64,000 nt of DNA, taken from assembly GCF_900451095.1 (NCBI RefSeq), contig NZ_UGHV01000001.1, positions 1 through 64,000 on the forward strand. The letters run 5' to 3'. Every line of letters starts with the position of its first letter. Position 1 is the stretch's first letter. The notes below the pieces were generated by a model, which saw nothing but the letters and a program-made list of their open reading frames with translations, did not search any database and was not told where the DNA came from. A program made the position numbers and the translations under genes. Of the stretch, positions 12,938 to 33,200 are shown in pieces. This DNA is from Helicobacter canis (lineage in GTDB: Bacteria > Campylobacterota > Campylobacteria > Campylobacterales > Helicobacteraceae).

Positions 12938-12947
12938 TCTTGCTCCT

Positions 12948-13064: not shown

Positions 13065-13066
13065 TT

Positions 13067-14949: not shown

Positions 14950-14968
14950 TTTTGACCTCCTTTTTTTG

Positions 14969-14974: not shown

Positions 14975-14997
14975 TCACCATCACAAAAGGAGTTTTT

Positions 14998-15390: not shown

Positions 15391-15403
15391 CTAGAATCCA
15401 CTT

Positions 15404-15640: not shown

Positions 15641-15649
15641 ACACCCACA

Positions 15650-16117: not shown

Positions 16118-16189
16118 ACAATCTCCTTTGAAGTTGGTGTCGTAGGTCGTGTTATTTGAGAGCTGCGAGTCAATAGTGCAAGAGATTCA

Positions 16190-16370
16190 GTCTTGGGCGA
16201 GCAATGCGCGTGATTTTAAGGATTTTGGGACAACCGCAGACCATTAGTCTAGCTCTGCCCCAAAATCCTTAAAAAACAAGCCCAGCCCCACCGCAAAACC
16301 AGCGAAGCGGTGCAAGGCGAAGCCGCAGCAGGTTTCTTTAGTAATGCTTAGAATCTTGTTTGAAGCAAAG
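16190..16370. repeat. R4 palindromic repeat, large unit
   Basis: A perfect 16-bp stem, TTTTAAGGATTTTGGG with CCCAAAATCCTTAAAA, encloses ACAACCGCAGAC and GTCTAGCTCTGC. The same centre, reversed, occurs at 48281-48310 inside a different 16-bp stem. An extra segment with AGCGAAGCGG and GCAGCAGG follows. Confidence 0.8.
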
Positions 16371-17510: not shown

Positions 17511-17531
17511 TTTGGCACAGAGTTGGCACAG
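17511..17531 (+). repeat. Two TTGGCACAG iterons, 11-bp step
   Basis: TTTGGCACAG at 17511-17520, then AGTTGGCACAG ending at 17531. The same word is found in the triple array at 17791-17820. Helical-turn spacing is typical of initiator or repressor binding sites. Confidence 0.5.
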
Positions 17532-17790
17532 GTGGCTGGGGCTTTGACCCCCCCCAAATCTCGCAGAAATTCCTAAAATCCTTTGAGACTTTACGCGTTT
17601 ATCTTACGTATCAAGGGGGCTTCGCACGCCTTGATACACTCGCCCCACTCTCCCAACCTCTCCCCCAAATCCACCCCCTAAAATCTCATTTCCCCCTAAA
17701 AAGTGGATTCTAGGGGGTTTGATTAAAGGGGCGATTTTGGGGGGTTGGGGGCTGGCTTTTGGGGTGATATGCTCGCGTGTGTAGCTTAGT

Positions 17791-17820
17791 TTTGGCACAC
17801 TTTGGCACAATCTGGCACAG
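17791..17820 (+). repeat. Three tandem 10-bp iterons TTTGGCACAN
   Basis: TTTGGCACAC, TTTGGCACAA and TCTGGCACAG occupy exactly 17791-17800, 17801-17810 and 17811-17820. Tandem 10-bp iterons in a gene-free region are consistent with an origin bound by the replication protein at 11350-12441, though binding is not demonstrated. Confidence 0.55.
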
Positions 17821-18642
17821 CTTTCAAATAACACGACCTAACGATCGGCGCAAATTGTAGCGCAAAATCGCGCCATTTTTGCAAACTTTTTGCAAATCTT
17901 GCAATCCCCCTTACTAAAGTCCTTACCAAAGCTCGCGCCAAAGCTCTCCCGCGCCCTTGCCCACGCACTTTGCACACCCTAGAATCCGCCCGCACCACCA
18001 CGCCCTAAAGATAAATCCGCCCTAGCGATTTGCATTTTTGCATTTTGCACTCGGTCCAATTTTCACGCAACGCCGCGCAATTTACCACCAAAATCGCCCC
18101 CTTTAAAATACTAAAGGCTTCTATCCTTTCTCCCAAGCAAGCTCGCTCGCCTTGCTCTCTTGTGTGGGGGGGTGTGGCTTTGGCGTGTGGCGTAAAATGT
18201 GGTGTAAAATGTGGGCGTGTGAGTAATGCGCCGCGGCGGTGTGGATCGCTAGGCAAAGTGTAAAATGTGGCGCGGATTCTAGGATTTGACTCTGTGGGGG
18301 GGGGGGGTAGAATCATCGACACGACTTTAAGCTTTGGGGTTAGAATCCGCTTTTGGTGTTTGTGGGTGTGGGGCTTGATTTGTGGATCGCCGCGCCGCTA
18401 TCGCGGCTCGCGATGACAGGAGGCTGGTGTGTCTTTATGGATCGCCACGCGGTGCAAGCACCGCTCGCGATGACAGAAAAACGAGAAACGCCCCAAACTA
18501 AACACGGCGCAGGATTCTAGGATTTGCGATGAGAAACCTTTGCTTTGCAAGGCGAGCGCGGAGATAAGGCTGGTCGCCTATCGCACAAGCGAGCCGCAGC
18601 AATCAAAGGTTTATCGCGCAAAGACAGAATCCTTTGTAGCTC

Positions 18643-19047
18643 CTACTCATCCCCCTTGCTACTTAGTCCTAAGCTCTCTATCTTATCAAGCTTCTTTTTT
18701 ATATCTTCTTCTATCTCTTTGTTTATGTTCTCATACTCTTTGTTTAGACTTCGCTCTTTGTAGGGGGTAATCTCTATCTTGCCTGTCCCCCCTCTCATAT
18801 CCTTTTTCACGCTTGACATACTATTTTTCATCACTTCTAGGATATAGTCTCTATCCCAGTTTGTGTAGCGGGCAAGGGAGTCTATGTAGCTCTCTTGCAG
18901 TCGTTCATACTTCAGCCAAAGTTCTACATTCTTTGCCACGCTTACTACAAGTAGTAGTATAAACACCGCGCGGAATATCTTATACCCTAAGCTTAAGCCT
19001 CCGCGCTTATCTAAGTCTTGTGTGAATTCTGCCTTAGCCTTGTCCAT
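18643..19047 (-). CDS. Small membrane protein, lysis region
   Basis: 134 residues from ATG 19047 (AAAAGGATAAACACA before it); the longer frame from 19101 lacks a ribosome site. One membrane helix at about residues 25-42 (FRAVFILLLVVSVAKNVEL), then a charged helical region with a Lys/Glu-rich end. The start overlaps the holin-like gene by 14 bases. It is the last gene of a tightly packed seven- or eight-gene operon. Function unknown. Confidence 0.6.
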   Translation of the reverse strand: MDKAKAEFTQDLDKRGGLSLGYKIFRAVFILLLVVSVAKNVELWLKYERLQESYIDSLARYTNWDRDYILEVMKNSMSSVKKDMRGGTGKIEITPYKERSLNKEYENINKEIEEDIKKKLDKIESLGLSSKGDE

Positions 19048-19399
19048 TGTGTTTATCCTTTTTGGTATATTTGCTATCCACTTCATCAGTGGTTCTTGCA
19101 CCTTTGAGAGCGATTACCTTTTGCACTATCTCTATCGCCCTATCCACGCCAAAGAAGCCTACCGCACAAGCAATTGCTACTTTGGCAAGGTAGGGTATAT
19201 CCGTAGCACTAAGTATCCCATACATCACGATTGTGATAAACGCACTTGTTATAATTGATTTAAACGCATAAAACTTCGTGGGCTGCTCTGTCTTATCGCT
19301 GAAAAATGCCACCAATCCACTGCATAGCCCTATGATAAACACAGGCACAAGCTCTAGGTATGCTGGCAAATTTGGGAACAACTCTACTAAATAATCCAT
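19034..19399 (-). CDS. Probable holin
   Basis: 121 residues from ATG 19399 (GTGGAGATGATACA before it). Three hydrophobic segments at about residues 13-33, 47-67 and 71-92 and a charged C-terminal tail ending SKYTKKDKHNGQG, as in three-span phage holins (LydA/phage-holin-3 style). AIACAVGFFGVDRAIEIV resembles the last span of that group. It would form lesions in the inner membrane to release the endolysin. Neighbours are small membrane proteins and a DUF5675-like protein, which fits a lysis cassette. Confidence 0.6.
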   Translation of the reverse strand: MDYLVELFPNLPAYLELVPVFIIGLCSGLVAFFSDKTEQPTKFYAFKSIITSAFITIVMYGILSATDIPYLAKVAIACAVGFFGVDRAIEIVQKVIALKGARTTDEVDSKYTKKDKHNGQG

Positions 19400-19692
19400 T
19401 GTATCATCTCCACTATCTCTGCTACTACAAGGCACAGCCCTATGCTCACTGCTCCCCAAAAGATTTTATGCAGTGTTTTATACAGCTTTATAAGCTTTTT
19501 ATCCCTAGTAGTCTCACTCTCGCAGTAGTATCGCCCTATGAGCCACCAGCGGAAAAGAAACTTATATGACCTTAGCCTTTTTCTTGCACTCTCTCTTGCA
19601 CCTTGCTCTTTATAAAGGTAGCGTATAAACACCCCTACACTTACCACAAATGCCAGCACAAATACTAGTAGTAAATACCCTTGCAAGCTCAT
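19387..19692 (-). CDS. Two-helix membrane protein next to holin
   Basis: 101 residues from ATG 19692, which follows AAAGGAGATGGGCA. A first membrane helix at residues 5-25, a very basic stretch (RESARKRLRSYKFLFRW), then a second helix at about residues 78-98. The end overlaps the holin start by 13 bases. Could be an antiholin or second holin component; the sequence alone does not decide. Confidence 0.6.
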   Translation of the reverse strand: MSLQGYLLLVFVLAFVVSVGVFIRYLYKEQGARESARKRLRSYKFLFRWWLIGRYYCESETTRDKKLIKLYKTLHKIFWGAVSIGLCLVVAEIVEMIQWII

Positions 19693-19943
19693 TGCCCATC
19701 TCCTTTGCAAAATTCTAAATCTCTCTCTAGTAGCTCGGTGTATTTCAGTATCTCTGCGACATCTTCACTGACACTAGATTCCTTGCTAGGCATAGGCTTT
19801 GGTATATCCTTAGTCTTGCACTTTGTGGGGATATACACGGCTTCACGCTTTGTTATATCCGCACACGCGATTACATTGATAAGCACGACTAGCAGCATTG
19901 CTAGCCCTACTACAAAGCCCCATACCTTAGCAAGTATTCTCAT
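19689..19943 (-). CDS. Lipoprotein-like peptide, o-spanin candidate
   Basis: 84 residues. The N-terminal hydrophobic segment ends in a lipobox-like VIAC at about residues 24-27, followed by a Pro/Lys-rich linker (PTKCKTKDIPKPMPSKES) and an acidic helix. Outer-membrane spanin subunits have this build. The partner may be the 110-residue protein at 9949, though it lies 9 kb away, or the coiled-coil protein at 19940. Start and stop overlap neighbours by four bases. Confidence 0.5.
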   Translation of the reverse strand: MRILAKVWGFVVGLAMLLVVLINVIACADITKREAVYIPTKCKTKDIPKPMPSKESSVSEDVAEILKYTELLERDLEFCKGDGQ

Positions 19944-20218
19944 TTCTTGCTAGCCTTTTTAATCTCCACTAAATCCTTAGTGATATACTCTAGGGCTTCT
20001 TTTAGCCCAGCGATTTCATCGGCGTTTAGCTTTGTCTTATTAGCTAATGCTTCAGTCGCTTCTGTTAGCTTCTCTTGGGTGCTAGTGATTAGCTTTAGTG
20101 TTCCAGTGGTATCGCCTAGCCATCTTGCTAATTGCGCTAGTTGCGCTTGCGTGCTTACATATCTTTCTAGCTCTAAATCCTTGTCGATTCCTAGCCATTT
20201 TTGTAGTAGTCTTTTCAT
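19940..20218 (-). CDS. Coiled-coil protein
   Basis: 92 residues, no membrane span, with regular heptads from about residue 22 to the end (LITSTQEKLTEATEALANKT). GGAGACACA precedes the ATG at 20218. Overlaps the lipoprotein candidate start by four bases (ATGA-type). Function unknown. Confidence 0.6.
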   Translation of the reverse strand: MKRLLQKWLGIDKDLELERYVSTQAQLAQLARWLGDTTGTLKLITSTQEKLTEATEALANKTKLNADEIAGLKEALEYITKDLVEIKKASKK

Positions 20219-20243
20219 TGTGTCTCCTTTGTGTTGGTTTGGA

Positions 20244-20498
20244 TTACCTTAACCCTTGTGGCTTTGGTGGCTCGTATGCTTTGCTATGACTGTTTAGCAC
20301 TTCATCGCTGGGCATTACATTGCACACTTTAAAGTCGCAAGGGCTTAGGACTACTTCGCCTTTATCCTTGCGTGCGGCAGAGCAGTTAAACTCTTTATCG
20401 CAATGCTTGTAAGTCGCTAGCGTGTGGATAAAAAAGCCTATAAGAAAAAAGGTTATAAAAGTAACTACCACTAGCCCTAAGTCTTGTAAATGTTTCAT
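20244..20498 (-). CDS. Membrane-anchored Cys-containing protein
   Basis: 84 residues. An N-terminal membrane helix (about residues 8-28) is followed by an exterior part with four Cys (HCDKEFNCS, SPCDFKVCN) that could form two disulfides in the periplasm. ATG overlaps the TGA of the 34-residue gene. Function unknown; the cassette suggests lysis or envelope. Confidence 0.6.
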   Translation of the reverse strand: MKHLQDLGLVVVTFITFFLIGFFIHTLATYKHCDKEFNCSAARKDKGEVVLSPCDFKVCNVMPSDEVLNSHSKAYEPPKPQGLR

Positions 20499-20599
20499 TT
20501 TTTAGCCTTTGCCTTGTCTTTACTCTGTGCTTGTCGCTCGCGCATTTTTTCTAGCATTTTTATAATGCGCTTGTTGGTAGTCTTTAGTGGTTTGCTCAT
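20495..20599 (-). CDS. 34-residue very basic peptide
   Basis: ATG at 20599 overlaps the stop of the DUF5675-like gene (ATGA), and its own stop overlaps the next ATG. About one third of residues are Lys or Arg (MSKPLKTTNKRIIKMLEKMR ... KAKAKK). The chain of four-base overlaps is the main evidence that it is translated. Function unknown. Confidence 0.55.
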   Translation of the reverse strand: MSKPLKTTNKRIIKMLEKMRERQAQSKDKAKAKK

Positions 20600-21126
20600 T
20601 GAATCTCTTTAACCACTAGTCTAAAGTTTTCAATGCCGTGTTTCTCAAATAGCAAGAACAAATCATTTACACATCTAGTGCTATCACTACAAGTTCCATT
20701 GCCATTATCTACATAATTGACAAGAATACACGCGAGGGTATCGTGAGGCGAATTCCCGCTATGAATAAGCACACGCCTAGAAGCAAAGCTTGGCAACTCT
20801 TTTGTCTTTAACCACACAGCTACATTTCTACCATTCTTTGCTTTCCATTTTGGATATGCTTTTGCAGTAGCACCATTTGTGCTAGAGTCTGTCCATTCTA
20901 GGTAATACTCTCTTGCCACTATGCGCTTATCTTGGTTTGGTGTATCGGTAGATTCTCCGCCGTTCTCGCAAGTAACGCAAGCAAAGATATTAGCACCACT
21001 CTCATCGGTGATTGTAAGCTCGCCGATTGTGCTAGGCTCTGTTTTATACACTCGCCCTGTTTTAGCGTTTGGTGGTTTTTGCACGCTAGCGTATTCTTTC
21101 TTGCGTTGTAGGGTGATTGTTAGCAT
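20596..21126 (-). CDS. DUF5675-like protein, possible lysis enzyme
   Basis: 176 residues. The segment RRVLIHSGNSPHDTLACILVNY, then SDSTRCVNDLFLLF, follows the pattern IHxGNxPxDTxGCILVG ... S of DUF5675, a family often found in phage lysis or tail regions. An enzymatic role on peptidoglycan is proposed by analogy only. His and Cys residues in that motif are candidate active-site residues. Start 21126 follows GAGAAAGGATAGAA, the edge of an R2 repeat. It heads the lysis operon. Confidence 0.55.
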   Translation of the reverse strand: MLTITLQRKKEYASVQKPPNAKTGRVYKTEPSTIGELTITDESGANIFACVTCENGGESTDTPNQDKRIVAREYYLEWTDSSTNGATAKAYPKWKAKNGRNVAVWLKTKELPSFASRRVLIHSGNSPHDTLACILVNYVDNGNGTCSDSTRCVNDLFLLFEKHGIENFRLVVKEIQ

Positions 21127-21137
21127 TTCTATCCTTT

Positions 21138-21345
21138 CTCGCGTTGTCTTTTGCGCGCTTTTGCTAGATTCTACGGCGCGGGCTTGCTCATTTACGCCGA
21201 GTAAAATCCCTGCGCCCGCGCCTTGAAAGCTAGCAAAATCATCGCAAAATACTGCCGCTTGCGTGTGTGGTTAGAAAACGCGATTTCTTGCGTTTCTCTT
21301 TTTTGTCATCGCGAGCTTTGCGACAGCAAAGCGTGGCGATCCATT
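21138..21345. repeat. R2 and R1 repeats
   Basis: R2 at 21138-21266 with stem GGCGCGGGC/GCCCGCGCC, and R1 at 21306-21343 with core CTTTGC/GCAAAG. The R2 end continues into the ribosome site of the gene starting at 21126. The 21378-21391 AAAAAGGGGTAAAG motif follows before the adaptor gene's stop. Confidence 0.8.
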
Positions 21346-21377
21346 AAAACGCGATTATTCCTAGAATCCGCTTTTTT

Positions 21378-21391
21378 AAAAAGGGGTAAAG
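21378..21391 (+). promoter_or_regulatory. AAAAGGGGTAAA motif upstream of lysis operon
   Basis: AAAAAGGGGTAAAG between the adaptor gene end and the lysis operon. Read on the minus strand it is CTTTACCCCTTTTT, located 250 bp upstream of the DUF5675-like gene. Its role is inferred from recurrence only. Confidence 0.4.
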
Positions 21392-21407
21392 CTAGGCGAT
21401 ATTTGGG

Positions 21408-21989
21408 CTATGCTTTGATAAATGGCGTGATAAACGCTCTTTTTTCACGGCTAGCATTTGTGATAGCCCTTAGCTTATCGCACTCTTTTTCATACAGCTT
21501 TGTGTAGAAGCCCACGCGATCAAGGTTGCTAGCATTGGTCTCTATCTCAAGCACGATCACCAAAGCCCCCAGCACCAAAGCCCTGTGATAGAGCGGGTCT
21601 AGGATCACTTCCCTTTCATTTGTGTCGGTGTTTGCCCAGATCTCTAGCACGCCGCTAGTAAAGGGGGCGATCGTGTAAGCCCTAGGGCTTAAGGCTATAA
21701 GCGTGGGGGAGCTTGGCGGGTGCTTTAGGGCTTGGGTGTAGCTTTTTAGATCGCACGCCTTGCCGTTAAACTTCGCGTGGATTATCTCTAGCACGGGGGC
21801 TTCTAGCTCTAGTGTGCTATCTCTCTCCCCTAGCTCTTGCCTAAAATGCCCTATATTTGTGCAAAGCTCATAGATGATCTTGCTTTGGGCTTGTAAGATC
21901 ACATCGCCTAGCTCTGTATCACTGAAGCTTAGTCGCTCGTAGTCTGTGTCTCGAAGGCGGGAGCGGAGTTGTAGAAGTATGGTTTGCAT
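21408..21989 (-). CDS. Head-tail adaptor-like protein
   Basis: 193 residues. The N-terminal helical region (LRSRLRDTDYERLSFSDTELGDVILQAQSKIIYEL) resembles phage adaptor/connector proteins that attach under the portal and measure short helical domains. The middle is beta-rich, and a C-terminal helix with LGALVIVLEIE follows. Its role would be to link head and tail. It lies next to two small structural-type genes. The family call (DUF6682/gp4-like) is tentative. RBS is not strong, only a GAGAGAATAAA context. Confidence 0.45.
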   Translation of the reverse strand: MQTILLQLRSRLRDTDYERLSFSDTELGDVILQAQSKIIYELCTNIGHFRQELGERDSTLELEAPVLEIIHAKFNGKACDLKSYTQALKHPPSSPTLIALSPRAYTIAPFTSGVLEIWANTDTNEREVILDPLYHRALVLGALVIVLEIETNASNLDRVGFYTKLYEKECDKLRAITNASREKRAFITPFIKA

Positions 21990-21990
21990 T

Positions 21991-22188
21991 TTATTCTCTC
22001 TCGGTAGGGAGTGTGAAGCTTAGTGTGCTCTTAGCTTTTTCTGCGCGTTTGTTTGCTTGTGCGCGTTTTTGCACGCGAGCTTCATAGTCATCTTGCATTC
22101 CTAGCATTTCTTTGACTTTATCTGCTAGCTTTGCGCCTGTGGTAGATCCGCCGCTTAAGACTTTGCCGATTTGTTGTTTTTGGTTCAT
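21991..22188 (-). CDS. 65-residue protein ending TLPTERE
   Basis: Start 22188 follows AAAGGAGCAAAAA. A Gly/Ser/Thr-rich N-terminus (VLSGGSTTGAKLADKV) leads into a very basic helix (RVQKRAQANKRAEKAK) and an end STLSFTLPTERE. The last residues match the LPTERY ending of the scaffold-like protein and of the 137-residue protein at 48853-49266. Likely a minor virion or assembly protein. Confidence 0.6.
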   Translation of the reverse strand: MNQKQQIGKVLSGGSTTGAKLADKVKEMLGMQDDYEARVQKRAQANKRAEKAKSTLSFTLPTERE

Positions 22189-22224
22189 TTTTTGCTCCTT
22201 TATGGTGTTGTTGTCATTTTTCTC

Positions 22225-22470
22225 TCACTCGCGAGCCGACTTGTCGGCGTGGCGATCCATAGCTTAAACCTAGAATCCACTTTTGCGTTTTAATGGATCG
22301 CCACGCTTTGCTGTCGCAAAGCTCGCGATGACAAAAAAGGCGTTTGTGAAAAAAGGATTCTAGGATTTTGCGATGATTTTGGGGGTTTTCAAGCGGTGGG
22401 CGAAGGGATTTTACTCGGCGTAAATGAGCAAGCCCACCGCGCAGAATCCACCAAAAGCGCGCAAAAGACA
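22225..22470. repeat. R1 (forward), R1 (reverse) and R2 (reverse)
   Basis: R1 core CCGAC/GTCGG near 22225-22260, reverse R1 core CTTTGC/GCAAAG at 22294-22332, and R2 at 22370-22465 with stem GCGGTGGGC/GCCCACCGC. The ORF 22214-22498 is repeat read-through. Confidence 0.8.
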
Positions 22471-22479
22471 GAATCCTTC

Positions 22480-22875
22480 TCACTTGTAGCCTTTGCAAAT
22501 TGCGTAAATCCGCACGCTCGCATAGATCATATATGCTTTTATCCTGCTAAACGCCCTTGTCTCTATCATCGCTTCTAGAAATACCTTATCCGCAAAAACC
22601 CTAGAGACTCTGCCAGCGTGAAACTCTACACATAGATAGTCGTGTAGCACTGCGCATTTTAGTCCCTTGCCAAAGCGCGGTAGCACAAAGTCTGCCCCAA
22701 AGTTGCTAAATCCATCTGTGTGAAAGCCCCTTGGCACTTTTATCGCGCTTTGATCATCTGCGCTACTGCCCTTGCGATAGTAGTAGAAGCCTTGCAGTAG
22801 TGTCAGGCTCTTGCCATCATTGCTAAATCGCACTTCAATAGGCTCGGTAAATCTCGCTAGCTCTTGTGATTCCAT
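22480..22875 (-). CDS. DUF1353 family phage protein
   Basis: 131 residues from ATG 22875 (AAAAAGGAGCAAA before it). The motif VPRGFHTDGFSNF, then AVLHDYLC at about 76-83 and ADKVFLEAM, is the DUF1353 pattern. These small phage proteins are often near lysis or tail genes; conserved His/Asp suggest an enzyme, but no activity is established. The end runs into R2 repeat sequence. Confidence 0.8.
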   Translation of the reverse strand: MESQELARFTEPIEVRFSNDGKSLTLLQGFYYYRKGSSADDQSAIKVPRGFHTDGFSNFGADFVLPRFGKGLKCAVLHDYLCVEFHAGRVSRVFADKVFLEAMIETRAFSRIKAYMIYASVRIYAICKGYK

Positions 22876-22915
22876 TTTGCTCCTTTTTGCCAAGTATGCG
22901 TAAAATCGCTTATAT

Positions 22916-22952
22916 AAAAAAGGGGCAAGTATTTAGCGATAAATGCTACAAT
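22916..22952 (+). promoter_or_regulatory. Promoter for the 107-residue plus-strand gene
   Basis: AAAAAGGGGCAAGT at 22916-22929 (variant of the recurring motif) and TGCTACAAT with -10 box 22947-22952. The ATG follows at 22974 after CAAGGAGCCTAG. Same composition as the promoters at 4965 and 49331, but with a longer gap between motif and -10. Confidence 0.55.
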
Positions 22953-22973
22953 CCTAAAAATCAAGGAGCCTAG

Positions 22974-23297
22974 ATGACTACAATGACATTAAATGAGAGC
23001 TTTAAAGCCCTAGTGCGAGAGGCATTCCCCGATAAAAGCGATAAAGTTATAAGTATCTTTGATGAAGTGGTGAGCCATAAGGCAAGTAGCGATTTTTTAA
23101 ATGTGCAGGAGCTAAAGGCTCGCGCGATCGATGAGATCCGTAGCGAGCTAGCGACTAGGGATTTTGTGCGTGCGGAGATCGCAGAAGTGCGTCAAGAGAT
23201 CGCACGCGCTAAAGTGGATATTTTAAAATGGGTCTTTGGCTTGCAGGCTGGCACGATTGCGATATTGATCGGGGCGATGAAGTTTATCCTAGGCTAA
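22974..23297 (+). CDS. Coiled-coil protein with C-terminal membrane helix
   Basis: 107 residues. The middle (VQELKARAIDEIRSELATRDF, then VRAEIAEVRQEIARAKVD) is a coiled coil resembling DUF1640/CCDC90-type bacterial proteins. The C-terminus ILKWVFGLQAGTIAILIGAMKFIL is a membrane anchor. It runs towards the reverse transcriptase gene and overlaps its 3' end by nine bases. It is not an Avd protein (not a basic four-helix bundle). Confidence 0.65.
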   Translation: MTTMTLNESFKALVREAFPDKSDKVISIFDEVVSHKASSDFLNVQELKARAIDEIRSELATRDFVRAEIAEVRQEIARAKVDILKWVFGLQAGTIAILIGAMKFILG

Positions 23298-24410
23298 AAG
23301 TCTAGGCTCCCTACGATAGAAGCATAGCCCTTTGAGTGGGTAGGCTATGTGCGCTTTCTTGCAGTAGGCTTTGATCTTATGCTTTATCACGCGCAAGATT
23401 TTGCTAAAGAGATTAAAGCAGCTTGCCCGTTTTACATATCCATAGTAGCTAAAGATCCTTGCAAACTCTTTTGCCCCTACGCGCTTTAGTCTTGCTAGAT
23501 CTTTTATGCGCTTTGCCGTGGCTTTTCTCACGCGAGCAAAGCTTTCAAAGCTCACCACCCCCAAAAAGTCTAGCCCGCTACGCATAGGTCTTAGGCACAC
23601 TTTATGGGCTTGTAGTCCTAGATCTTGCAAGGCTCTTTTAATATTCCCAAAGCTTCTCCATAGATCCCTCTTACTATCGCTAAACAGCACTATATCATCA
23701 GCATATCGCACCAGCTTTACGCCCTTTGTATGCGCCCTATCAATGTCCCTTAGATATACATTGCCAAAAAGAGCACTTAGATAGCTCCCTAGATCTAGCC
23801 CCTTTTGATTTGCCCCTAGCACTTTAGCGATAAGCGTAAGTGTCCTAGCACACGATATGTTCCTAGCGATTTGCTTTTGTAAAATTGCTAGATTGATATG
23901 CGCGTAGAATTTGGCTATATCGCATTTGAGATAGTATCTATACACCTTGGCATATCTCTTCACGCGCTTTAGTCCATAATCCACCCCCCGCCCCTTGATA
24001 CACGCGCAAGTCTGCGTGCTAAGAGTCTTTAGCAGCAAAGGCTCTATGATATTTGCTAGGGCGTGGTGGATTATTTGATTAGGATAAAAGGGGGAGATCG
24101 CTAGCTCGCGCGCCTTGCCATTTTCTAGGCGAGTTTTCTTCGTGGTGGATTCTAGTAGCTTAAGATCTTTGCCCATAAGCTTATCTTGCACCTTTTTGGC
24201 ATAAAGCTCTCGATCTTTTAGCACTCTTTGCACGCTAGCTCTTTTTAGCTTGCCGCGGCTTGCTTTGGTGATCGCTAGCTGGATATTTTCTAAGCTTATG
24301 ATCTTTTCATAAAGGTGTTTATGTGTTTTTATGGTAGATCCTTTGTTTCTATTCTCCCCATAATTTTCGCTTACGCTACTAGTTATTATTTGGGGCTTTC
24401 CTTTGTTCAA
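23289..24410 (-). CDS. DGR reverse transcriptase
   Basis: 373 residues from TTG at 24410. Motifs: catalytic Asp164 in YYLKCDIAKFY, LGSYLSA at 207-213 in place of the QGxxxSP of group II intron enzymes (the DGR-type signature is [ILV]GxxxSQ), YADD at 236-239 and GLDFLG. No maturase or endonuclease domain. It copies the template RNA from 24702-24794 into error-prone cDNA, mutating adenines, for transfer to the variable repeat at 24943-25032. Homologues begin near KTHKHLYEKI; here that codon is ATA at 24332, preceded by AAAGGATCTACC, so the start is uncertain. Confidence 0.9.
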   Translation of the reverse strand: MNKGKPQIITSSVSENYGENRNKGSTIKTHKHLYEKIISLENIQLAITKASRGKLKRASVQRVLKDRELYAKKVQDKLMGKDLKLLESTTKKTRLENGKARELAISPFYPNQIIHHALANIIEPLLLKTLSTQTCACIKGRGVDYGLKRVKRYAKVYRYYLKCDIAKFYAHINLAILQKQIARNISCARTLTLIAKVLGANQKGLDLGSYLSALFGNVYLRDIDRAHTKGVKLVRYADDIVLFSDSKRDLWRSFGNIKRALQDLGLQAHKVCLRPMRSGLDFLGVVSFESFARVRKATAKRIKDLARLKRVGAKEFARIFSYYGYVKRASCFNLFSKILRVIKHKIKAYCKKAHIAYPLKGLCFYRREPRLLA

Positions 24411-24483
24411 GCGTTGGATCTAGGCGGATCCGCATTTATCGCTTGGGCTACTAGGGGGTGTTAGAATCCACTTTTTTGCTTTA

Positions 24484-24520
24484 TGGATCGCCACGCCGAC
24501 AAGTCGGCTCGCGATGACAA
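24484..24520. repeat. R1 repeat (reverse) upstream of RT
   Basis: GGATCGCCACGCCGAC at left and GTCGGCTCGCGATGAC at right, core CCGAC/GTCGG. It lies between the template repeat and the reverse transcriptase gene. Confidence 0.8.
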
Positions 24521-24574
24521 TAAAAAAGTGGATTCTATAACGCTGCTGGATTCTACACCAAGCACAAAGCGGAA

Positions 24575-24680
24575 GGATTTTGAGGCTAGAATCGTGGCTT
24601 TGCAAGGCGAGCGCGGAGATAAGGCTGGATCGCCTATCGCACAAGCGAGCCGAAGCGATCCACGATTCTAGTCCAAAAGC
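24575..24680. repeat. R3 hairpin between template repeat and RT
   Basis: Closing stem GAATCGTGG / CCACGATTC with standard R3 arms. It begins about 20 bp beyond the RT-proximal end of the template repeat, so the template transcript would carry this hairpin right after the template. In the Bordetella phage DGR the spacer at this place is needed for cDNA priming; whether the R3 element does this here is untested. Confidence 0.75.
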
Positions 24681-24701
24681 CAACGCCGAGCTAGAAATAG
24701 G

Positions 24702-24794
24702 GTGGGAGCCGATGTTCCAGTTGCGATCCCCCAGCTCGTTGTTACCATTCCAAGCAAACAAGCCGGCGTGCGCGGAGTTGTTCAGGCTGCCGCT
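24702..24794 (-). ncRNA. DGR template repeat (TR)
   Basis: 93 bp (31 codon-sized units on the minus strand) matching the variable repeat at 24943-25032. If read like protein it gives ...NNSAHAGLFAWNGNN..., with Asn (AAC/AAT) codons exactly where the variable repeat differs. The TR has 21 adenines; the VR is changed at 12 of the 19 aligned ones and lacks TAA (one 3-nt deletion). No other substitutions occur. Not preceded by a ribosome site, so it acts as RNA template and not as gene. Confidence 0.93.
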
Positions 24795-24888
24795 TCCCCC
24801 TAGCAGCCGGGTCCTAGCGCGGGCTTCTCTCTCAAGCGTCGCTCCCCAAATACTTTAGCTGCTTTTTTAGATTTCCAAACTCTCGTGG

Positions 24889-24913
24889 GCGCGATCTTTT
24901 ATAAAGATCGCGC
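24889..24913. other. 11-bp hairpin just downstream of VR
   Basis: GCGCGATCTTT at 24889-24899 and AAAGATCGCGC at 24903-24913 with a 3-base loop, located 5 bp beyond the target gene's stop and 29 bp beyond the VR. In DGRs a hairpin or cruciform close behind the VR increases retrohoming. A transcription terminator is the alternative, but no long T run follows in the gene direction. Confidence 0.65.
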
Positions 24914-24918
24914 GGCTT

Positions 24919-26904
24919 TTAGGTAGTCTTTTTGAAACAAGGGCGGGAGCCGAAGTGCCAGCCGCGAACCCCCAGCCCGGCGCCATCCCAAGCAAACAAG
25001 CCGGCGTGCGCGGAGTTGTACAGGCTGCCGCCGATGAGACAAAGCCGTAGCCCATCTGCGATCCAGCTCCCATCAGTAGTGCCATTTGTGCTAGTGCCTC
25101 CCTCTGTGGCTTTGGGGATCATCGTGCCCGCGTGGGTGCGCTTCACTTGAGAGCCTGAAGTGATATTGACAATATGTCCGGTATTTGTGTAGCCATTGCT
25201 AGAAGTCTCATCGCTATAAGCTTGCTCGTGAGTAGCTAGATAGACTAGTTTATTATTGAGATATATCCCATCGACAAACTCCCAGACATTCCCAGCAGGA
25301 TTGCAGATACCGCGATAGATAAACATCTTTGCCCTTTTATCACTCCCGCTTACAGGGATACTCATCGTCTTATCCCCCGTGGCAAAGCTTATAGCTTCAT
25401 AGAGATAGCTTGTGTTGTTCGCGCTTGTATTCCAGCTATAGATCGCCCACTTGCTCTGCTCTGTGCTTTTGCTATCTGCCGTGCTTCCTAGATAGCCTCT
25501 CTCTATACTATACAAAAATGCTAGGGCTTCTCGCTCGTGGTGGTTTTGGATCTTCATATCTTTGTTGAATTGCTGCGTTTGAGTCCTAAAGCTAGGGCGG
25601 TCAATCTCTGTGGTAGGCTTTGGATTACTACTTAGAAAGAAGCTTCCTTGCATACCCCCTAGGCTTACGCTCTCCCAGCTCCCTAGATAAAAGCCCTCCA
25701 CCTTCACGCTAGAGATCACGCCATTTTTATCCGCCCCCCTTCCGCTTAAATTTGTGTAGCCTTGATAGCCATAGGCGTTTAGATCAAAGCTAAAGGGACT
25801 TAGACTGCAAAGCTTTAGCAGATATTCTTGACTATTGTAGGCAAACTCTATGTCGATTATGTGATGCTCTGGGATCTTGCTGACACACTGCCAAAGCGCG
25901 CTATCTTTATACTTTTGCATAGCTTGGTGGGATAGGTCGGCATCTTGTGGGATAGACTCTAGCGTGCCGTCATTTTTCAAAGCGTAGCGTTTGATATGTG
26001 AGTGGGGCATATCCGCGCGATCAAAAAATTTGGTCACAGGATCATCGTTTGACTTTTCATTTAAGCGATCTTGCACTTTATCTAGCCAGAGGTTATCTTC
26101 AGCGGTGCCGGTGTTTATACGGCAGGATTTATTCGTATCGATATTTTCGATAAATCCTGCAAACACGCTAGCTTTTACCTTCACGCTTATGGGCTTACTC
26201 CACTCACTCACGGCACCTGTAGGGCTTATCGCGCGTGCCTTTATGCTAGCACTTGTATCACTGCTTGCATTTGTCGCTGTGAGGGCGTAGCTCCCGGCTT
26301 CTAGGTTTTGCGTTTTTGTGGCAGCTAGATTTGTGAGCAGTAGCTCATAGGTAAGGTTGCTTCCGTGCGTGTCGCTATGGCTTGGGCTTATCTCTAGCTC
26401 GCCGCTTGCGTTTTTTAGCAGCTCTTTGTGGCTAAATGCTATGCTAGGCACGCTAGGTGGATTCTCCCCTAGGGTTTGGGTGTATTTGGTTAGGATATAA
26501 ATATCCCTTGCTTCTTGGGCTGATCCTTGCAGCTCTTTAGCCTTTTTTAGCAAGCTAGCTCTCGTGTCTTGCACTCTCTCTAGCCTATCGGTGTTTAGCT
26601 CATAAAAGCTCTTTATGATATAGCCCAAAGCTTCTGCATTTTTAGCCGCTTGGGCTAGCTCTTTTAGCTTATCGAGTGTGGCTTGGCGGTGGGCGATATT
26701 TGTCGCGCTTTCTGGCGTGGATTCTTGCTCGCTTGGGCTTGCAGTATCTTGGGTGGTCTCTTCATCTGGGTGCTTTGGCACGCTGTGTGTTGGCTCTTCA
26801 TCACTATTTAGCTCGCTATCTACTTGACTCTCTAGCATTTCTTCTCGTGGGCGTAGCTCTCTCATTTGCTCTCCTTGTGTGGATTCTTGGATTTGATTTT
26901 TCAT
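24919..26904 (-). CDS. DGR-diversified tail-tip/receptor-binding protein
   Basis: 661 residues. The first 130 are acidic and coiled-coil-like; about 150-260 hold an Ig/FnIII-like segment (SASIKARAISPTGAVSEWSK). The last 200 form an FGE-sulfatase/C-type-lectin fold: NPAGNVWEFVDG at about 533-544, DGSWIADGLRLCLIGGS, then the variable repeat at residues about 624-654 (NSAHAGLFAW ... GWHFGSRP). Such folds in DGR targets display variable ligand-binding surfaces. It lies behind a coiled-coil fibre gene and a fibre-assembly-like gene, so host-receptor binding is likely. Start 26904 has AAGGAGAGTCA; a second in-frame ATG at 26862 also has AAGGAGAGCAA. Confidence 0.88.
   Translation of the reverse strand: MKNQIQESTQGEQMRELRPREEMLESQVDSELNSDEEPTHSVPKHPDEETTQDTASPSEQESTPESATNIAHRQATLDKLKELAQAAKNAEALGYIIKSFYELNTDRLERVQDTRASLLKKAKELQGSAQEARDIYILTKYTQTLGENPPSVPSIAFSHKELLKNASGELEISPSHSDTHGSNLTYELLLTNLAATKTQNLEAGSYALTATNASSDTSASIKARAISPTGAVSEWSKPISVKVKASVFAGFIENIDTNKSCRINTGTAEDNLWLDKVQDRLNEKSNDDPVTKFFDRADMPHSHIKRYALKNDGTLESIPQDADLSHQAMQKYKDSALWQCVSKIPEHHIIDIEFAYNSQEYLLKLCSLSPFSFDLNAYGYQGYTNLSGRGADKNGVISSVKVEGFYLGSWESVSLGGMQGSFFLSSNPKPTTEIDRPSFRTQTQQFNKDMKIQNHHEREALAFLYSIERGYLGSTADSKSTEQSKWAIYSWNTSANNTSYLYEAISFATGDKTMSIPVSGSDKRAKMFIYRGICNPAGNVWEFVDGIYLNNKLVYLATHEQAYSDETSSNGYTNTGHIVNITSGSQVKRTHAGTMIPKATEGGTSTNGTTDGSWIADGLRLCLIGGSLYNSAHAGLFAWDGAGLGVRGWHFGSRPCFKKTT
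24943..25032 (-). other. DGR variable repeat (VR)
   Basis: 90 bp at the 3' end of the target gene. Compared with the template (minus strand): AGC>GGC, AAC>TAC, AAT>GAT, AAC>GCC, GAG>GGG, GAT>GTT, AAC>GGC, AAC>CAC, ATC>TTC, CAC>CGC. All 12 changes are at template adenines. A 3-nt deletion falls in GGTAAC. Invariant positions keep the fold (GLFAW, GxW, GSxP). Confidence 0.93.
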
Positions 26905-26913
26905 TGACTCTCC

Positions 26914-27537
26914 TTAGGCTTGCTCTTCATAAGTTTGCATATCATCTTGGGCGGATTCTTGCTCGACTTTTGGGCTAAAAATGATCGCTTCTAGCTCTTG
27001 TGAGCTTTGCGCTTTAGTTATGGCGTCCTCGCACTTCTGGCGCGATCCTGTGAGCGTGGCAGAAAGTGTGCTAAAGATTTGGGCTTTTTCTAGGATCTTT
27101 GCTACTAGCTCTGCCTTTTCCACGCCCCTTGCTTTGGCAAGGCTATCGATGTAGGGGGTCTGTGCTTCTTGATTATTTTGATACGCCTTTGCCTCACTCT
27201 CTTGGGTAGGCCAGCTTTGTATCTCGGCTTGTGGCGTGGCTTGCGTGATAAGATCTAGGGCTTCTTGGTAGCTTGCGTTGATCTGTGCTAGCTTGATCGC
27301 CTTAAGCGTGGGGAGATCTAGCGGCGTTAGAGTCGCTGTGTGAAACATAGCCTGCAATATCGCGCTATCAGTTGCAGCTTGATTGATATAAAGCGCGCTT
27401 GCGTAGCGGTAGCTTGGCGGGGCTTTGGCTTCTTGGCTTGTTTTGGGGGCTTCTTGCATTCCTAAGAATACATTCACCCTCCCACTCGCACTATCTTTAA
27501 AGGCTAAAGGCTGATTGCTTGTCTGTAAAAATACCAT
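26914..27537 (-). CDS. Tail-fibre assembly-like protein
   Basis: 207 residues. The middle, LKAIKLAQINASYQEALDLI, then WPTQESEAKAY, TPYIDSLAKARGV and LTGSRQKCEDAI, follows the DUF4376/XkdW-like pattern of small phage proteins between tail-fibre genes: helical with a conserved Trp and a terminal I-x-x-A-x-x-x-x-E-L. They act as fibre parts or assembly factors. ATAAAGGAGCCACAA precedes the ATG. It lies between the long coiled-coil fibre gene and the DGR target. Confidence 0.65.
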   Translation of the reverse strand: MVFLQTSNQPLAFKDSASGRVNVFLGMQEAPKTSQEAKAPPSYRYASALYINQAATDSAILQAMFHTATLTPLDLPTLKAIKLAQINASYQEALDLITQATPQAEIQSWPTQESEAKAYQNNQEAQTPYIDSLAKARGVEKAELVAKILEKAQIFSTLSATLTGSRQKCEDAITKAQSSQELEAIIFSPKVEQESAQDDMQTYEEQA

Positions 27538-27548
27538 TTGTGGCTCCT

Positions 27549-29045
27549 TTATAAAAGATTGGTCCCTAGCTCGCTATCAGCTAGGTTTTGGCTTTGGCTG
27601 CTTGGCTTAAGCCCTTGCAGCAGGGCATTTATCTCTTGCAGTGCTTTGGTCTTTTCCTGCGTGATTGTCTCTAGGGCTGTGGTCTTATCGGTGTTTATGG
27701 ATTCTAGGGCTATGGCTTTTTTGGCTTCTAGCTCTGTTTTTGTTTGATTGCCTAGCTCTGCTAGCTGTGTCTCTAGCTCGCTCTTTTTCTCTTGCAGGGC
27801 TTGCAGGGCTTGATCTTTGGCGCGTTTTATAGCGTTGAGTGCTTCTTGACTGCCCGATCCGCTAATGTCCCCCCCAGCATTTTGGATGATCTCTTGTAGC
27901 TCTGCTTTTAGCTCATCTTTGTAGGTCTCTAGCTCTCCCTTGATCGCTTGCCCCTTTGTCTCTAGGGCTTGCTTGGTCTCTTGGGCTTTGTCTTGCACGC
28001 TAGATTCTATCTCTGCGATCTTTTGGGCTAGCTCTTGGCTCTTTTGCGTAAGTGTGCTTTCAAACTCTGCTAGCTTTCTTGTAAGATCTCCTAGCTTTGT
28101 ATCTAGTAGCGTGATATACTCATCTTTTTTGCTCTCAAGCTCTCTTTCATAGCCCTCTTTATCGCTTAAAAGCTCCGTGCGCATTTCATTTAGTAGGGTT
28201 TGGCTTAGGTTTGTTACCTCTTGCTTTAAAGCCTCTGCTAGCTTTATCTGCGCTTCTAGCTCTGCGCTTAAGCTCATAAGCTCTGCTAGCTTATGATCAA
28301 GCTCATTTAACGCTTGCAAAGCTTCTTTAACCTGCTCTAGATCTAGCTTGGTGCTATCGCTTAAGGATTTAGCTTCATCTAGCATAGTCTCTACTAGCTT
28401 ATAGATCGCTAGGCTTTGGGTGTGCTGCGTGGCTAGAGACTGCAAGGCTTGGTTTATATAGCTAGTGATAGCTTGCAAGTTTGCATTGAGCTCTGCCCAC
28501 TGCTTGGAGCTTAGGCTTATGCTTTGTGCGTGGTATTTGTAGAATCGAAACAAATCGCTAGAGATATTGAGCAGCTCGGCTATGCCTTGCAAGGTGTAGT
28601 GGGTGGATTCTATCACGCCGGCATTATTCTTGATCGCTTCGGCGACTTCTTGCTTGAAGGCTTCTAGCTTTTTCTCATCGGTTTGATCAAGCTCAGGGGC
28701 TAGGGGGTCATCGCCTAGGTCAGGGGCTTCTGGCAAAAGCGGTGGCTGTGGCGTTGGCTTTGCCGCGCTTGGTGTGGATTCAGCTTGCGGGGTAGAATCC
28801 TGCGCCGTGCTTGGCGTGGCTTCTTGGGCTTGCTCGCTAGAATCCTTGTTTTCATCGTCATCGCGAGCGGATTTATCCGCGTGGCGATCCATAGCCGCCG
28901 CGCTAGAATCCGCGCTAGAATCCACTTTTTGCGCGGTGGCTTGGCTGCTCTCTTGGGTGGATTCTAGGGCTTGCTCTTCTAGGTTTGCTTCTTGGCTTGG
29001 CTCTTGGCTCTTTTGGGCGGTGGGCTTTGTGGCTTGTCTTTTCAT
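27549..29045 (-). CDS. Long coiled-coil tail-fibre protein
   Basis: 498 residues. The N-terminal 120 are Gln/Ser/Pro-rich and include an R1 repeat read in frame (MDRHADKSARDD at about residue 50). The rest is nearly continuous heptad coiled coil to about residue 460 with one break (IQNAGGDISGSGSQ). A long trimeric or dimeric shaft is likely, with the DGR target as tip. The start is within the AAAAGGGGTAAAAATG context, so the recurring motif overlaps its ribosome site. Confidence 0.65.
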   Translation of the reverse strand: MKRQATKPTAQKSQEPSQEANLEEQALESTQESSQATAQKVDSSADSSAAAMDRHADKSARDDDENKDSSEQAQEATPSTAQDSTPQAESTPSAAKPTPQPPLLPEAPDLGDDPLAPELDQTDEKKLEAFKQEVAEAIKNNAGVIESTHYTLQGIAELLNISSDLFRFYKYHAQSISLSSKQWAELNANLQAITSYINQALQSLATQHTQSLAIYKLVETMLDEAKSLSDSTKLDLEQVKEALQALNELDHKLAELMSLSAELEAQIKLAEALKQEVTNLSQTLLNEMRTELLSDKEGYERELESKKDEYITLLDTKLGDLTRKLAEFESTLTQKSQELAQKIAEIESSVQDKAQETKQALETKGQAIKGELETYKDELKAELQEIIQNAGGDISGSGSQEALNAIKRAKDQALQALQEKKSELETQLAELGNQTKTELEAKKAIALESINTDKTTALETITQEKTKALQEINALLQGLKPSSQSQNLADSELGTNLL

Positions 29046-30283: not shown

Positions 30284-33200
30284 CTAGGTGGCTACTTCTT
30301 TATGTCCCATATATATCAAGTCGTGTTGCATTATCATCTGCTTTAATCTACCTTTTGTTGCTTCATAAGTTGTCTTATACTCTATCTTTCCATTTTTAGC
30401 GATTGAAATGCTTACAATATCTGTGATGTTGCTTGCATTCTTAAAAGGTTTGTAAAAATATAGTGTTCCTGCTTCATCTTTTGTAACAAAGGCTGGATTA
30501 TCTAGGATATGGATTAAAGCACCTGTAATATTAAATCTATTTTCTTTTTTGTTGCCTTGCTTGCTAAAATGTCTATACGCATAAGGGATATAGATATTTA
30601 CCACTCCTGCTGGTGTTTTATATGCTACTCTATTTTTAGCCTTATTTGGTGTGGCATTGCTTGAGTTGAGTAAAGATTTACTAAAAGTTTGCATATCCAT
30701 AGGGTTGGGTAAAGGTATTGCATAAGATTCTAACGCCTTATAATCTACCCTTCCGCTAGAATCTAAAAAGCTAGATTCTAGCTTCTTGCTTAATGCTTCG
30801 CCCATCATCGTGGCTTCGGCATTTGTATCATAAATGCTTGTGTCCATAGTTTTATGGGGGTGTGCTTGTAAAAATCCCTTTTCCCCTAGGGTTTTTAAAT
30901 TGTGTATATTTTGCTCTTGCTTGTAGATATGCTCCTGCAAGGAGTGGATTCTGTCATTGGCTAGTTTCTCTGCAGTTATTGGATTGTCAAATACTTTTTT
31001 ATATTCTGCAAGTATGTTGTCATATTCTTTCTTTGTTTTCTCTAGCTCTTGGCGTGTTTGTAAAAGATTTTTTTCAGCTCTTGCAAGTGCGTCATCTTGC
31101 ATTAGCCTTGCTTGCACATTTCTAGCCTCCACTTCTCCGTGCAGGTCAAAATACTCTTTGGCTTGTCTATAATAGTTTCTCCCATACGCAAAGCCCTCTA
31201 TATCTTGGATTGCGTGTTGTAGCTCGTGGTATAGCACTTCTTTGGGGGTGTGGTGTGTCGTGGCGATCTCGCCTAGGTTTATGGATAGGTGCTTGCTCTT
31301 TCCGTTATATTCTGGCATATACAGCCCAAAGGCTTCTAGTGTTTTATCATTTTTTATCACTAGGGTTTTAAGTTGTGGATATGCGTTAAAAAGCTCTTTA
31401 TCTTGCAAAATCTCCCCTAGCTCTACTTGCTGGGCTTTTTCAAGCTTGGGTATATCAAGCTCCCCACCCCTTTGGCTTATCTCAAACTTCCACCTTTGAT
31501 CCTTGTCCTTATACCAGCCTGTTTGCTCCCATATCTCTATCTCTTTTGCGCCTTTTGCTTCTAGCTCTTTGGCTCTCTCTAGCCTTGCTTTGTGCGGTGC
31601 GTAGGCTTCATTTGCTAGAGCCTTCTCCCCTGCGAAAAGCTGTGGATTTATATCAAAAAGCTTATTGTTGTGTAAAAAGCGCGTTAAAGCATTGTGCGTG
31701 CTGGTGGTGGCGTAGGTGTGCAAGTCTCTTTTGGCGATTTCTTGCATTAGCTGTGGATTGTCTTTTGCGATGTTTGGGTAGCTTTTGGCTACTTTTTTTG
31801 CTCGCCACTCTAGTCCCTTTGCCACTGCCTTGCTCCCAGCTACTCCGCCGAGCAGCCCTAGGGCAAACTTCTCGGGGCTAAATCTCCACTGCCCATTTTC
31901 ATCTTGCTCTATGCCGCTCACGCTTCCGCCTAGTAGTCCCGCCCCTAAGTGTGGATTGCTGTGAAAGATATTGGGACTAGAGTTATTAAAATACTTCCGC
32001 CCACTCTCGCTCTCTACGCCCCTGTTTTCTATATGCTTGATTTGATTGCTATCAAGCACCATAATCGTATCTGCCACGGGGTGTTTTTTGCCATTTTGTG
32101 TGCTATCATCTATGATATTTTTAAATATTATAGAATCGTGAAAATCCCTAATATTTTCTTGTATATGTTTAGGGATACTATCTATTGCATCATCTATATA
32201 ATCATTAAATGTATGCCCCTTAAAGTCTATCACTAAAGGATTTTTGGCATTCAAAAATACTTCATAAATATTAGCATTATAAGTTCTTGCGATTTTTTTG
32301 CTTGATGAAAAGTAATGCCCTTGTAAAAATTTATCCACTTGATTACTATATTTTGTATCAAAGACTTCAAAAATTTTATTTCCTATTTCTTTCCATTTCG
32401 TGCCGTGATAAAACACCTTCGGCAGTCCGTTTTCATCTTTTGTCAAAGGGCTTGAGTCTTTGTGCCACTCTAGCAGATCTTTTGCCTTTTTCTCATCGTA
32501 GGCAAACTTTTTCATCGCGGATTTTAGCAAGGCGTTAGAATCCTGTGCTACAATCTCTCTTGCAAGTCCATTCGGCTCTTGGTCTTTACTTGCTTGGCTG
32601 GTAAAAGTATGGATAAGGTCAGCGTTTTTTATCTTTGATTCTATATATCCCTTGCGTGCTTTGGGCAAAAATGTAAAGAGTCTTTTATCCTGCAAATCCG
32701 CTATCAAAAAGCTATAAAAGTTCTCCCCATCGTTAAATACCTTGATCTTTGTTTTTCGCTCGCCTTTTGTCAGCTCTATGTCTGGGTGCTTCAGGGTCGG
32801 CTCTATGATGTGCAAGTAGGCTAGTCTGCTTTGGGCATCGCCTTTTTTCTGTAAATGCGCTATGAAGTTTTCTTTATTTTCCACGCTTTCAAGGCTTTTT
32901 AGAAAGCTTTGTATATCAAGCTCCTGCGGTATCCTCGCACCTTGCTTTGATTCTAGTAGCTTCGTGGCTTCTTGTGGGGTGAGTGCCTTTGGAGTAGAAT
33001 CCACTTTTGGTGTTGCTTGCGGTGTGGGCGTGCTAGAATCTAGTCTAGGTTGTATCTTTTTCTTGTTAGTATGTCCATAAATGTGATAGTTTTTGACTAC
33101 TTTTCTCCACTCCCTAGCAAAATCATAAAATCCATCAAGATCTAGCCCATATTTTTGAGCCACTGCAAAATGTCTTTCCGCCTTTTCTCTAAAGCGTTGC

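What the first reader, a model, noticed from the sequence alone, without database searches (positions are those of the whole stretch)
23289..26904. Complete diversity-generating retroelement in a Helicobacter-type phage
Reverse transcriptase, template repeat, variable repeat and a C-type-lectin/FGE-fold target lie together within 3.6 kb on one strand, in the order target-VR-TR-RT. Seen directly: YADD, LGSYLSA, the TR/VR pair and the GNVWEFVDG motif. Known: such systems (Bordetella phage BPP-1 type) diversify receptor-binding proteins. Inference: this phage changes its host-binding tip by mutagenic retrohoming. DGRs are not commonly associated with Campylobacterota phages.
Basis: partly seen in the sequence, partly recalled or inferred. 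Interest (0 to 1): 0.95.

Follow-up and report, generated by a model that had tools for sequence, protein, structure and literature searches.

The report
Active retroelement rewriting Helicobacter phage tail
A prophage in a genome that is likely Helicobacter carries a reverse transcriptase and a template beside a tail-protein gene whose end differs between two copies of the phage mostly at template adenines, so the phage has likely been rewriting, recently, the part predicted to touch its host, with an enzyme that lacks the amino acid usually regarded as this enzyme family's hallmark.

Summary
RT (23289-24410), TR (24699-24793), VR (24940-25031) and a PHROG 5302 tail-protein target (24919-26904) lie on the minus strand. 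All 11 TR-to-VR substitutions fall on TR adenines (P about 2e-9), plus a 3-nt deletion. The RT falls inside the DGR clade. (2) H. canis prophages carry the same DGR; two records, by name of one strain, differ at 11 positions in about 17 kb, all in VR and all at TR adenines. So the DGR has very likely been active recently. (3) RT motif 4 is LGxYLSA, not xGxxxSQ, in all 27 rows of this lineage that cover it, and no bAvd match was found. This is a new, apparently active DGR variant that keeps adenine specificity without the hallmark glutamine. Receptor binding and the lectin fold are inferred; both structure models failed in the VR domain. DGRs are uncommon, not absent, in Campylobacterota (9 of 397 genomes found).

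The parts
23289..24410 (-). DGR reverse transcriptase, 373 aa; motif 4 LGSYLSA at 23772-23792, YADD at 23694-23705
24699..24793 (-). Template repeat (TR), 95 nt, 20 adenines
24940..25031 (-). Variable repeat (VR), 92 nt, near the 3' end of the target gene; 3 nt shorter than TR
24919..26904 (-). Target gene, 661-aa tail protein (PHROG 5302), VR at its C-terminus, GNVWEFVDG at 25267-25293
24889..24913 (-). 11-bp hairpin with 3-nt loop, 5 nt after the target stop and 26 nt after VR; candidate homing hairpin (loop is not GRNA)
24411..24698 (-). TR-RT spacer, about half of it repeat elements found elsewhere in the genome or window; likely 3' part of the template RNA (inferred)
17699..17721 (.). 23-bp attachment core at a phage-phage junction (same core at the host/phage border on C3 and at the phage/host border C1:71833-71855); phage unit 54,134 bp

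Best explanation
This is a diversity-generating retroelement of a likely Helicobacter prophage: beside an unchanged template the end of a tail-protein gene carries substitutions only at template adenines, which most likely arise because the phage's own reverse transcriptase copies the template RNA with errors at adenines and the copy replaces the gene's end, so that the predicted host-contact surface would change. Shown: TR/VR pair with adenine-only substitutions in the window; DGR-clade RT; TR and RT constant while VR differs between phage copies in one genome and between two records of (by name) one H. canis strain. Inferred from BPP-1: RNA template, cDNA intermediate, retrohoming guided by the 3' end of VR and the hairpin after it. 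Inferred: the target is a receptor-binding tail protein with a lectin-type fold. The RT appears to do this without the SQ glutamine of motif 4 and without a recognisable bAvd.
For: Adenine-only substitutions, 11 of 11 in the window. Over five TR/VR pairs of this lineage 48 of 94 aligned TR adenines are changed and 1 of 375 non-adenine sites is substituted; the pairs are not independent (two share one TR, two others share another). C1 and C3 phage copies: 17 differing columns in about 7.98 kb, 11 of them in VR, 9 of those 11 at TR adenines; RT and TR identical. H. canis BK070056 against BK070057: 11 differences, 11 of 11 at TR adenines, none elsewhere in 7,013 + 10,069 bp. RT nested in DGR RTs, SH-aLRT 100/96/97. 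Relatives of the target vary at 13 of 31 VR residues against 21 of 381 outside (window group of 4) and 14 of 31 against 57 of 381 (10 H. canis-like). Same gene order in H. canis prophages. A clear hairpin follows the target stop in the window and, with another sequence, in Hcanis01463.
Against: No transcript, cDNA or phage particle was seen. The C3 copy has a 1-nt deletion and a G-to-T change in VR that put its target out of frame, and C3 ends 640 bp away, so consensus error is possible. VR1 and VR2 share 6 identical substitutions, so they are not two fully independent rewrites. The hairpin loop is not the GRNA tetraloop that BPP-1 needs; a strict hairpin scan (stem 7 or more, loop 3-8) found none after the H. 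canis VRs, and Hcanis32756 gives only a branched fold. No bAvd match. Fold of the VR domain unresolved: block-mean pLDDT below 40 throughout it in both models.
Confidence: 0.92

Rival explanations
1. A formerly active DGR whose RT (SA motif) is now dead; VR differences are relics.
For: Motif 4 lacks the SQ found in 64 of the 110 aligned rows; no bAvd match; the C3 target is out of frame.
Against: The SA motif is shared by all 27 rows of the lineage that cover it, some only about 60% identical to the window, so it is old; yet VRs differ between copies that are otherwise nearly identical.
Confidence: 0.05
2. VR differences come from ordinary recombination with other phages that carry other VRs, not from new retrohoming.
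For: Several related prophages exist in this host group; VR1 and VR2 share 6 substitutions.
Against: In H. canis differences stop sharply at the VR (11 of 11 inside) while all flanks are identical, and every one is at a TR adenine; recombination would be expected to bring flanking markers. No further VR-like copy was seen in the own genome with DNA (40 of 95 candidates scored) or with the target protein.
Confidence: 0.05
3. The two VRs in the window's genome are assembly or consensus artefacts of one locus.
For: C3 ends 640 bp from VR; C1's first 1.1 kb carries 15 gaps against its repeat; C3 VR has an odd 1-nt deletion.
Against: The last 640 bp of C3 have no differences; 9 of 11 VR differences fall on TR adenines; H. 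canis shows the same independently. A consensus of a mixed VR population would itself mean DGR activity.
Confidence: 0.1
4. The RT is a retron, DRT/Abi or group II RT and the repeat is a coincidence.
For: NCBIfam and PADLOC best names are group II maturase, RT, DRT, far below the NCBIfam cut-offs.
Against: Tree placement against group II and QGxxxSP RTs (no retron or DRT rows) and adenine-only repeat; the seven QGxxxSP loci and the fragment G154 gave no TR/VR pair under the same scan.
Confidence: 0.01

Closest known systems
BPP-1 DGR of Bordetella phage (mtd-avd-TR-brt)
   Same: Target with C-terminal VR, TR then RT on one strand, adenine-directed TR-to-VR changes (18 of 22 in the deposited BPP-1 pair), stem-loop after the target stop, phage tail target.
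   Different: No bAvd match; motif 4 LGSYLSA instead of IGSLTSQ; 3-nt loop instead of GAAA; TR 95 nt against 134; target is PHROG 5302, no match to Mtd seen.
Helicobacter canis prophage DGRs (BK070053/55, BK070056, BK070057; RT annotated only as 'Retron-type RNA-directed DNA polymerase' or hypothetical)
   Same: Same order, same SA motif, RT about 61% and target about 70% identical, adenine-only VR changes.
   Different: Longer spacers and other sequences after VR; one record pair shows recent VR change.
Archaeal gut virus vir215 (NC_092586) DGR
   Same: PHROG 5302 tail target and PHROG 1423 RT side by side, adenine-only TR/VR (15 of 15), 120 columns at the target's C-terminal end match by profile (E 1e-7, probability 94%).
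   Different: Motif 4 has SQ; sequence otherwise very different (19% identity to the window target).
TaqVP (PDB 5vf4), DGR variable protein with an FGE-type C-type-lectin fold
   Same: GNVWE motif and C-terminal VR align in the same order.
   Different: Weak similarity only (E 0.0033; the two stretches alone are not significant).

Membership tests
Diversity-generating retroelement | TR/VR pair whose differences fall on TR adenines | tested here: met
   11 of 11 substitutions; five pairs, 48 A-site against 1 non-A-site substitution
Diversity-generating retroelement | RT in the DGR clade, apart from group II and other RTs | tested here: met
   61 rows; 48 DGR-type RTs against 13 outgroup rows, SH-aLRT 100. 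Retron and DRT RTs were not in the tree
Diversity-generating retroelement | VR inside a target ORF next to RT | tested here: met
   VR = residues 625-655 of the 661-aa target
Diversity-generating retroelement | Motif 4 (I/V/L)GxxxSQ: hallmark but not universal (90% of 155, PMC3521204, section 8 read) | tested here: not met
   LGSYLSA; 27 of 27 covering rows of the lineage have SA
Diversity-generating retroelement | VR changes while TR stays constant | tested here: met
   C1 against C3; BK070056 against BK070057
Diversity-generating retroelement | cDNA made from TR RNA and moved into VR | not testable with these tools
   needs wet work
BPP-1-type phage DGR | bAvd accessory protein (PF22296) | tested here: not met
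   none in own genome or in two H. canis phage records; found in BPP-1, VP58.5 and ZX4290 as positive controls (3 of 8 records). A diverged Avd is not excluded
BPP-1-type phage DGR | GC-rich 7-10 bp stem with GRNA tetraloop after VR (PMC3240598, passages seen) | tested here: inconclusive
   11-bp stem in the right place, 3-nt loop ATA
C-type-lectin/FGE-fold DGR variable protein | CLec fold with VR on the ligand surface | tested here: inconclusive
   profile hit to 5vf4, E 0.0033 / 0.026 / 0.0036 with three alignments; models unusable in this domain

The most novel reading that the evidence does not exclude
A whole lineage of Helicobacter phages runs a working DGR whose RT has lost the motif-4 glutamine (SQ to SA) and has no Avd, showing that neither is needed for adenine-specific rewriting; and the rewriting goes on in lysogens, so that tandem or excised copies of one phage in a single culture already carry different tail tips.
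Probability: 0.55. Interest if true: 0.68.

Novelty: new variant of a known kind. Interest (0 to 1): 0.55.

Why it matters
It would give Helicobacter phages, whose prophages a 2025 survey calls inadequately studied (PMC11840440, start of abstract), a built-in way to change their host-contact protein, with traces of recent use already in deposited genomes. It also bears on an open question: the SQ dipeptide was proposed to set adenine-specific infidelity (PMC3521204, section 10). The exceptions there (15 of 155) were SP, SH, NQ, PA, AQ and VQ, with SA not listed, and the authors could not exclude sequencing errors or recent inactivation. Here the change is lineage-wide and accompanied by fresh adenine-directed VR variation, which argues that the glutamine is dispensable and makes the point testable in vitro.

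Tried and rejected
Pfam at E<=1 gave nothing for the target or its relatives P0077, P0087-P0089. Rfam gave nothing at 22000-27600. Target search in viral contigs found no relative. A genome-contig scan with the RT found 2 distant loci only. The first TR/VR scan was void because of invalid BLAST options; repeated.

A retron or DRT identity was considered because of names in NCBIfam/PADLOC and rejected by tree and TR/VR pattern. An H. pylori paper that came up first (PMC4978471, passages) concerns an Abi-like RT, not a DGR.

Novelty in print. Ten searches of the held library, nine of which bear on it (one search was for 5VF4), listed no paper whose title or abstract start tells of a Helicobacter DGR. 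Several lists were capped (12 of 23, 12 of 104, 10 of 48, 12 of 2,508) and most listed papers were not opened. The Helicobacter prophage survey that includes the H. canis prophages (PMC11840440, passages) has no occurrence of 'reverse transcriptase', 'retroelement' or 'diversity-generating' in its main text. The global DGR survey (PMC8144416) and the thousand-genome survey (PMC6642488) have no 'Helicobacter' or 'Campylobacter' in their main text (passages). The 2012 DiGReF survey (PMC3521204) has neither name either, but a table row 'Delta/Epsilonproteobacteria' with 3.1 and 2.6 percent. No supplementary table could be read, so a listed but unnamed entry is possible.

Rows dropped: the tree used 24 of 73 RT proteins. 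Left out were cr6_1 (stop codons inside under the standard code), G154 (223 aa), and three survey loci without a tblastn hit in my script (L045, L049, L055). In the TR/VR scan (5 or more substitutions, at least 75% at A) 24 of 38 loci gave a pair. The 14 misses are Hcanis32756 (9 of 13, fails the filter because the alignment ran past the repeat; seen), G001 (VR beyond the contig), LBR48, a Rickettsiales MAG, G273, G320, the seven QGxxxSP loci and G154.
Full report
What is there. The minus strand of 23289-26904 holds a 661-aa tail protein gene (24919-26904), whose C-terminal end is the VR (24940-25031), then the TR (24699-24793), a spacer, and a 373-aa RT (23289-24410). TR and VR differ at 11 aligned sites, every one an adenine in TR (6 to G, 3 to T, 2 to C), and VR lacks 3 nt. 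With 20 adenines in 95 nt the chance of 11 of 11 is about 2e-9. One of the 11 (TR position 91, VR G) is probably a fixed difference, as H. canis has G in both repeats there.

The host and the phage. G001, of the same genus group, has 5,166 bp identical to an H. canis prophage record, so the genus is inferred to be that of H. canis. PHROG profiles name integrase, replication initiator, DnaB-like helicase, primase, major head protein, terminase and portal in the window. Window 1-17721 is repeated at C1:54152-71855 with no mismatches and 15 gaps, all in the first 1.1 kb. A 23-bp core, AAAAGTGGATTCTAGGGGGTTTG, stands at 17699-17721 between two phage ends, on contig C3 just after an ORF that I read as trpA (my reading; no profile search), and at C1:71833-71855 before host-type genes. 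So the phage unit is 54,134 bp, and the assembly contains a phage-phage junction, that is, a tandem prophage or an excised circle. Which of the two is not settled.

Two phage copies, two VRs. C3:64930-72904 equals window 17699-25671 at 99.79%. The alignment differs in 17 columns: 1 indel at 18295, 5 columns at 24624-24633 inside a repeat element with 38 further partial matches in the genome (40 of 95 candidates scored), and 11 in VR. Nine of these 11 are at TR adenines; the others are the T of the window's 3-nt deletion and a G-to-T beside a 1-nt deletion in C3. RT and TR are identical. The C3 deletion puts its target out of frame; C3 ends 640 bp further on, so a consensus error is possible. 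VR1 and VR2 share 6 identical substitutions, which may mean partial rewriting of a common ancestor, a preference for G, or chance.

The same in H. canis. Four prophage records of H. canis have the RT and the target. BK070053 and BK070055 are identical over the 17 kb fetched. BK070056 and BK070057 are by their names (Hcanis32756, Hcanis32756T) records of one strain, which their identity supports but no call proves. They differ at 11 positions in 7,013 bp, all 11 in VR and all at TR adenines, and at none in the 10,069 bp with TR and RT. The two ends of the BK070057 record lie in or just after VR, as a mixed VR population could cause, though other causes are possible. Over five TR/VR pairs 48 of 94 aligned adenines are changed and 1 of 375 other sites is substituted; the five are not independent.

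Protein-level variation. In four close target alleles (window group) 13 of 31 VR residues vary against 21 of 381 other residues from residue 250 on; in ten H. canis-like alleles 14 of 31 against 57 of 381. Two of these 14 alleles (window, P0080) lack one residue at the same place, where the window TR has the tandem codons AAC AAC and the H. canis TR AAT AAT. Slippage in threes within AAC repeats is mentioned for BPP-1 (PMC12875486, passage).

The RT. In a 61-row tree the lineage (10 rows) is one clade (SH-aLRT 100) nested among DGR RTs, next to those of Lactobacillus phage LBR48, Butyrivibrio phage Closwp03 and P0026 (96), then Perkons and vir215 (97); group II RTs and ~730-aa QGxxxSP RTs are outside (100) (quick method; no retron or DRT rows). 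In 110 aligned rows motif 4 ends in SQ in 64, SA in 27, SP in 15 (one of them not of the QGxxxSP form), NQ in 2, and is not covered in 2. All 27 SA rows are this lineage (the window counted twice, as P0001; G001 identical to Hcanis32756); the two uncovered rows, P0002 and P0024, belong to it too. PMC3521204 (sections 8 and 10 read) found SQ in 90% of 155 DGR RTs and proposed that it sets the adenine infidelity. Here adenine-directed variation persists without it.

Accessory parts. bAvd (PF22296) has no match in the own genome, in two H. canis phage records, G114, cr55_1 or LBR48, and matches in BPP-1, VP58.5 and ZX4290. After the target stop the window has an 11-bp hairpin with loop ATA (z -2.9 on the sense strand), Hcanis01463 a 14-bp one with a 9-nt loop, Hcanis32756 only a branched fold; a strict scan found none in the two H. 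canis loci. BPP-1 needs the stem and a GRNA loop (PMC3240598, passages); the loop here does not fit. About half of the spacer between TR and RT is repeat elements, and TR plus spacer fold strongly (z -3.4). The spacer ends, and one repeat element in Hcanis01463, are alike in H. canis; the rest is not.

The target. PHROG 5302 'tail protein'. An archaeal-gut virus, vir215, pairs the same two PHROGs and has its own adenine-only TR/VR, and its target matches by profile over 120 C-terminal columns. The only PDB sequence match at E<=0.01 is TaqVP (5vf4), E 0.0033, through GNVWE and the VR end; TaqVP has the FGE-type C-type-lectin fold (PMC6328139, passages). AlphaFold gave no usable VR domain. Receptor binding is therefore inference.

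How common. In 397 Campylobacterota genomes 22 have an RT match at E<=1e-10. Eight have an adenine-biased TR/VR beside it (G000, G114, G374, G414, G296, G246, G128, G361); G001 is identical to BK070057 where compared. Two more have SQ RTs without a pair in the stretch held (G273, G320), seven have QGxxxSP RTs, four were not resolved (G154, G344, G286, G143). Within the family, 5 of 121 genomes match at E<=0.001.

Verdict. A real and very probably recently active DGR. It is ordinary in architecture and unusual in its RT motif and lack of a bAvd match; not found described for Helicobacter in the library searched, within the limits told under Tried and rejected.

Noticed in passing
window 30284-42883 (-): 4199-aa protein with PBECR1 (two stretches), PBECR2 and PBECR3 nuclease domains, ART-PolyVal ADP-ribosyltransferase, LPD3 and LPD23 by Pfam: a very large polyvalent phage protein.
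   Followed up: partly
window 17699-17721; C3:64930-64952; C1:71833-71855: The attachment core contains GTGGATTCTA, a string that recurs in the repeat elements around it, so the phage may use a repeat-like site after the trpA-like gene.
   Followed up: partly
window 24482-24537, 24600-24687, 21145-21352, 22229-22470: Repeat elements inside phage intergenic regions, including the TR-RT spacer; C1 and C3 copies differ by 5 columns within one such element.
   Followed up: partly
contig C3, equivalent of window 25020-25026 (L003): 1-nt deletion and G-to-T at the start of the second VR, putting that copy's target out of frame.
   Followed up: partly
L036 (G114), L037-L041, L043: Further DGRs with adenine-biased TR/VR and SQ-type RTs in other Campylobacterota genomes.
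   Followed up: partly
window 22974-23297 (+): Small gene with a sub-threshold CCDC90-like coiled-coil match, convergent with the RT; a similarly sized gene stands there in Hcanis01463 but is not annotated in Hcanis32756.
   Followed up: no
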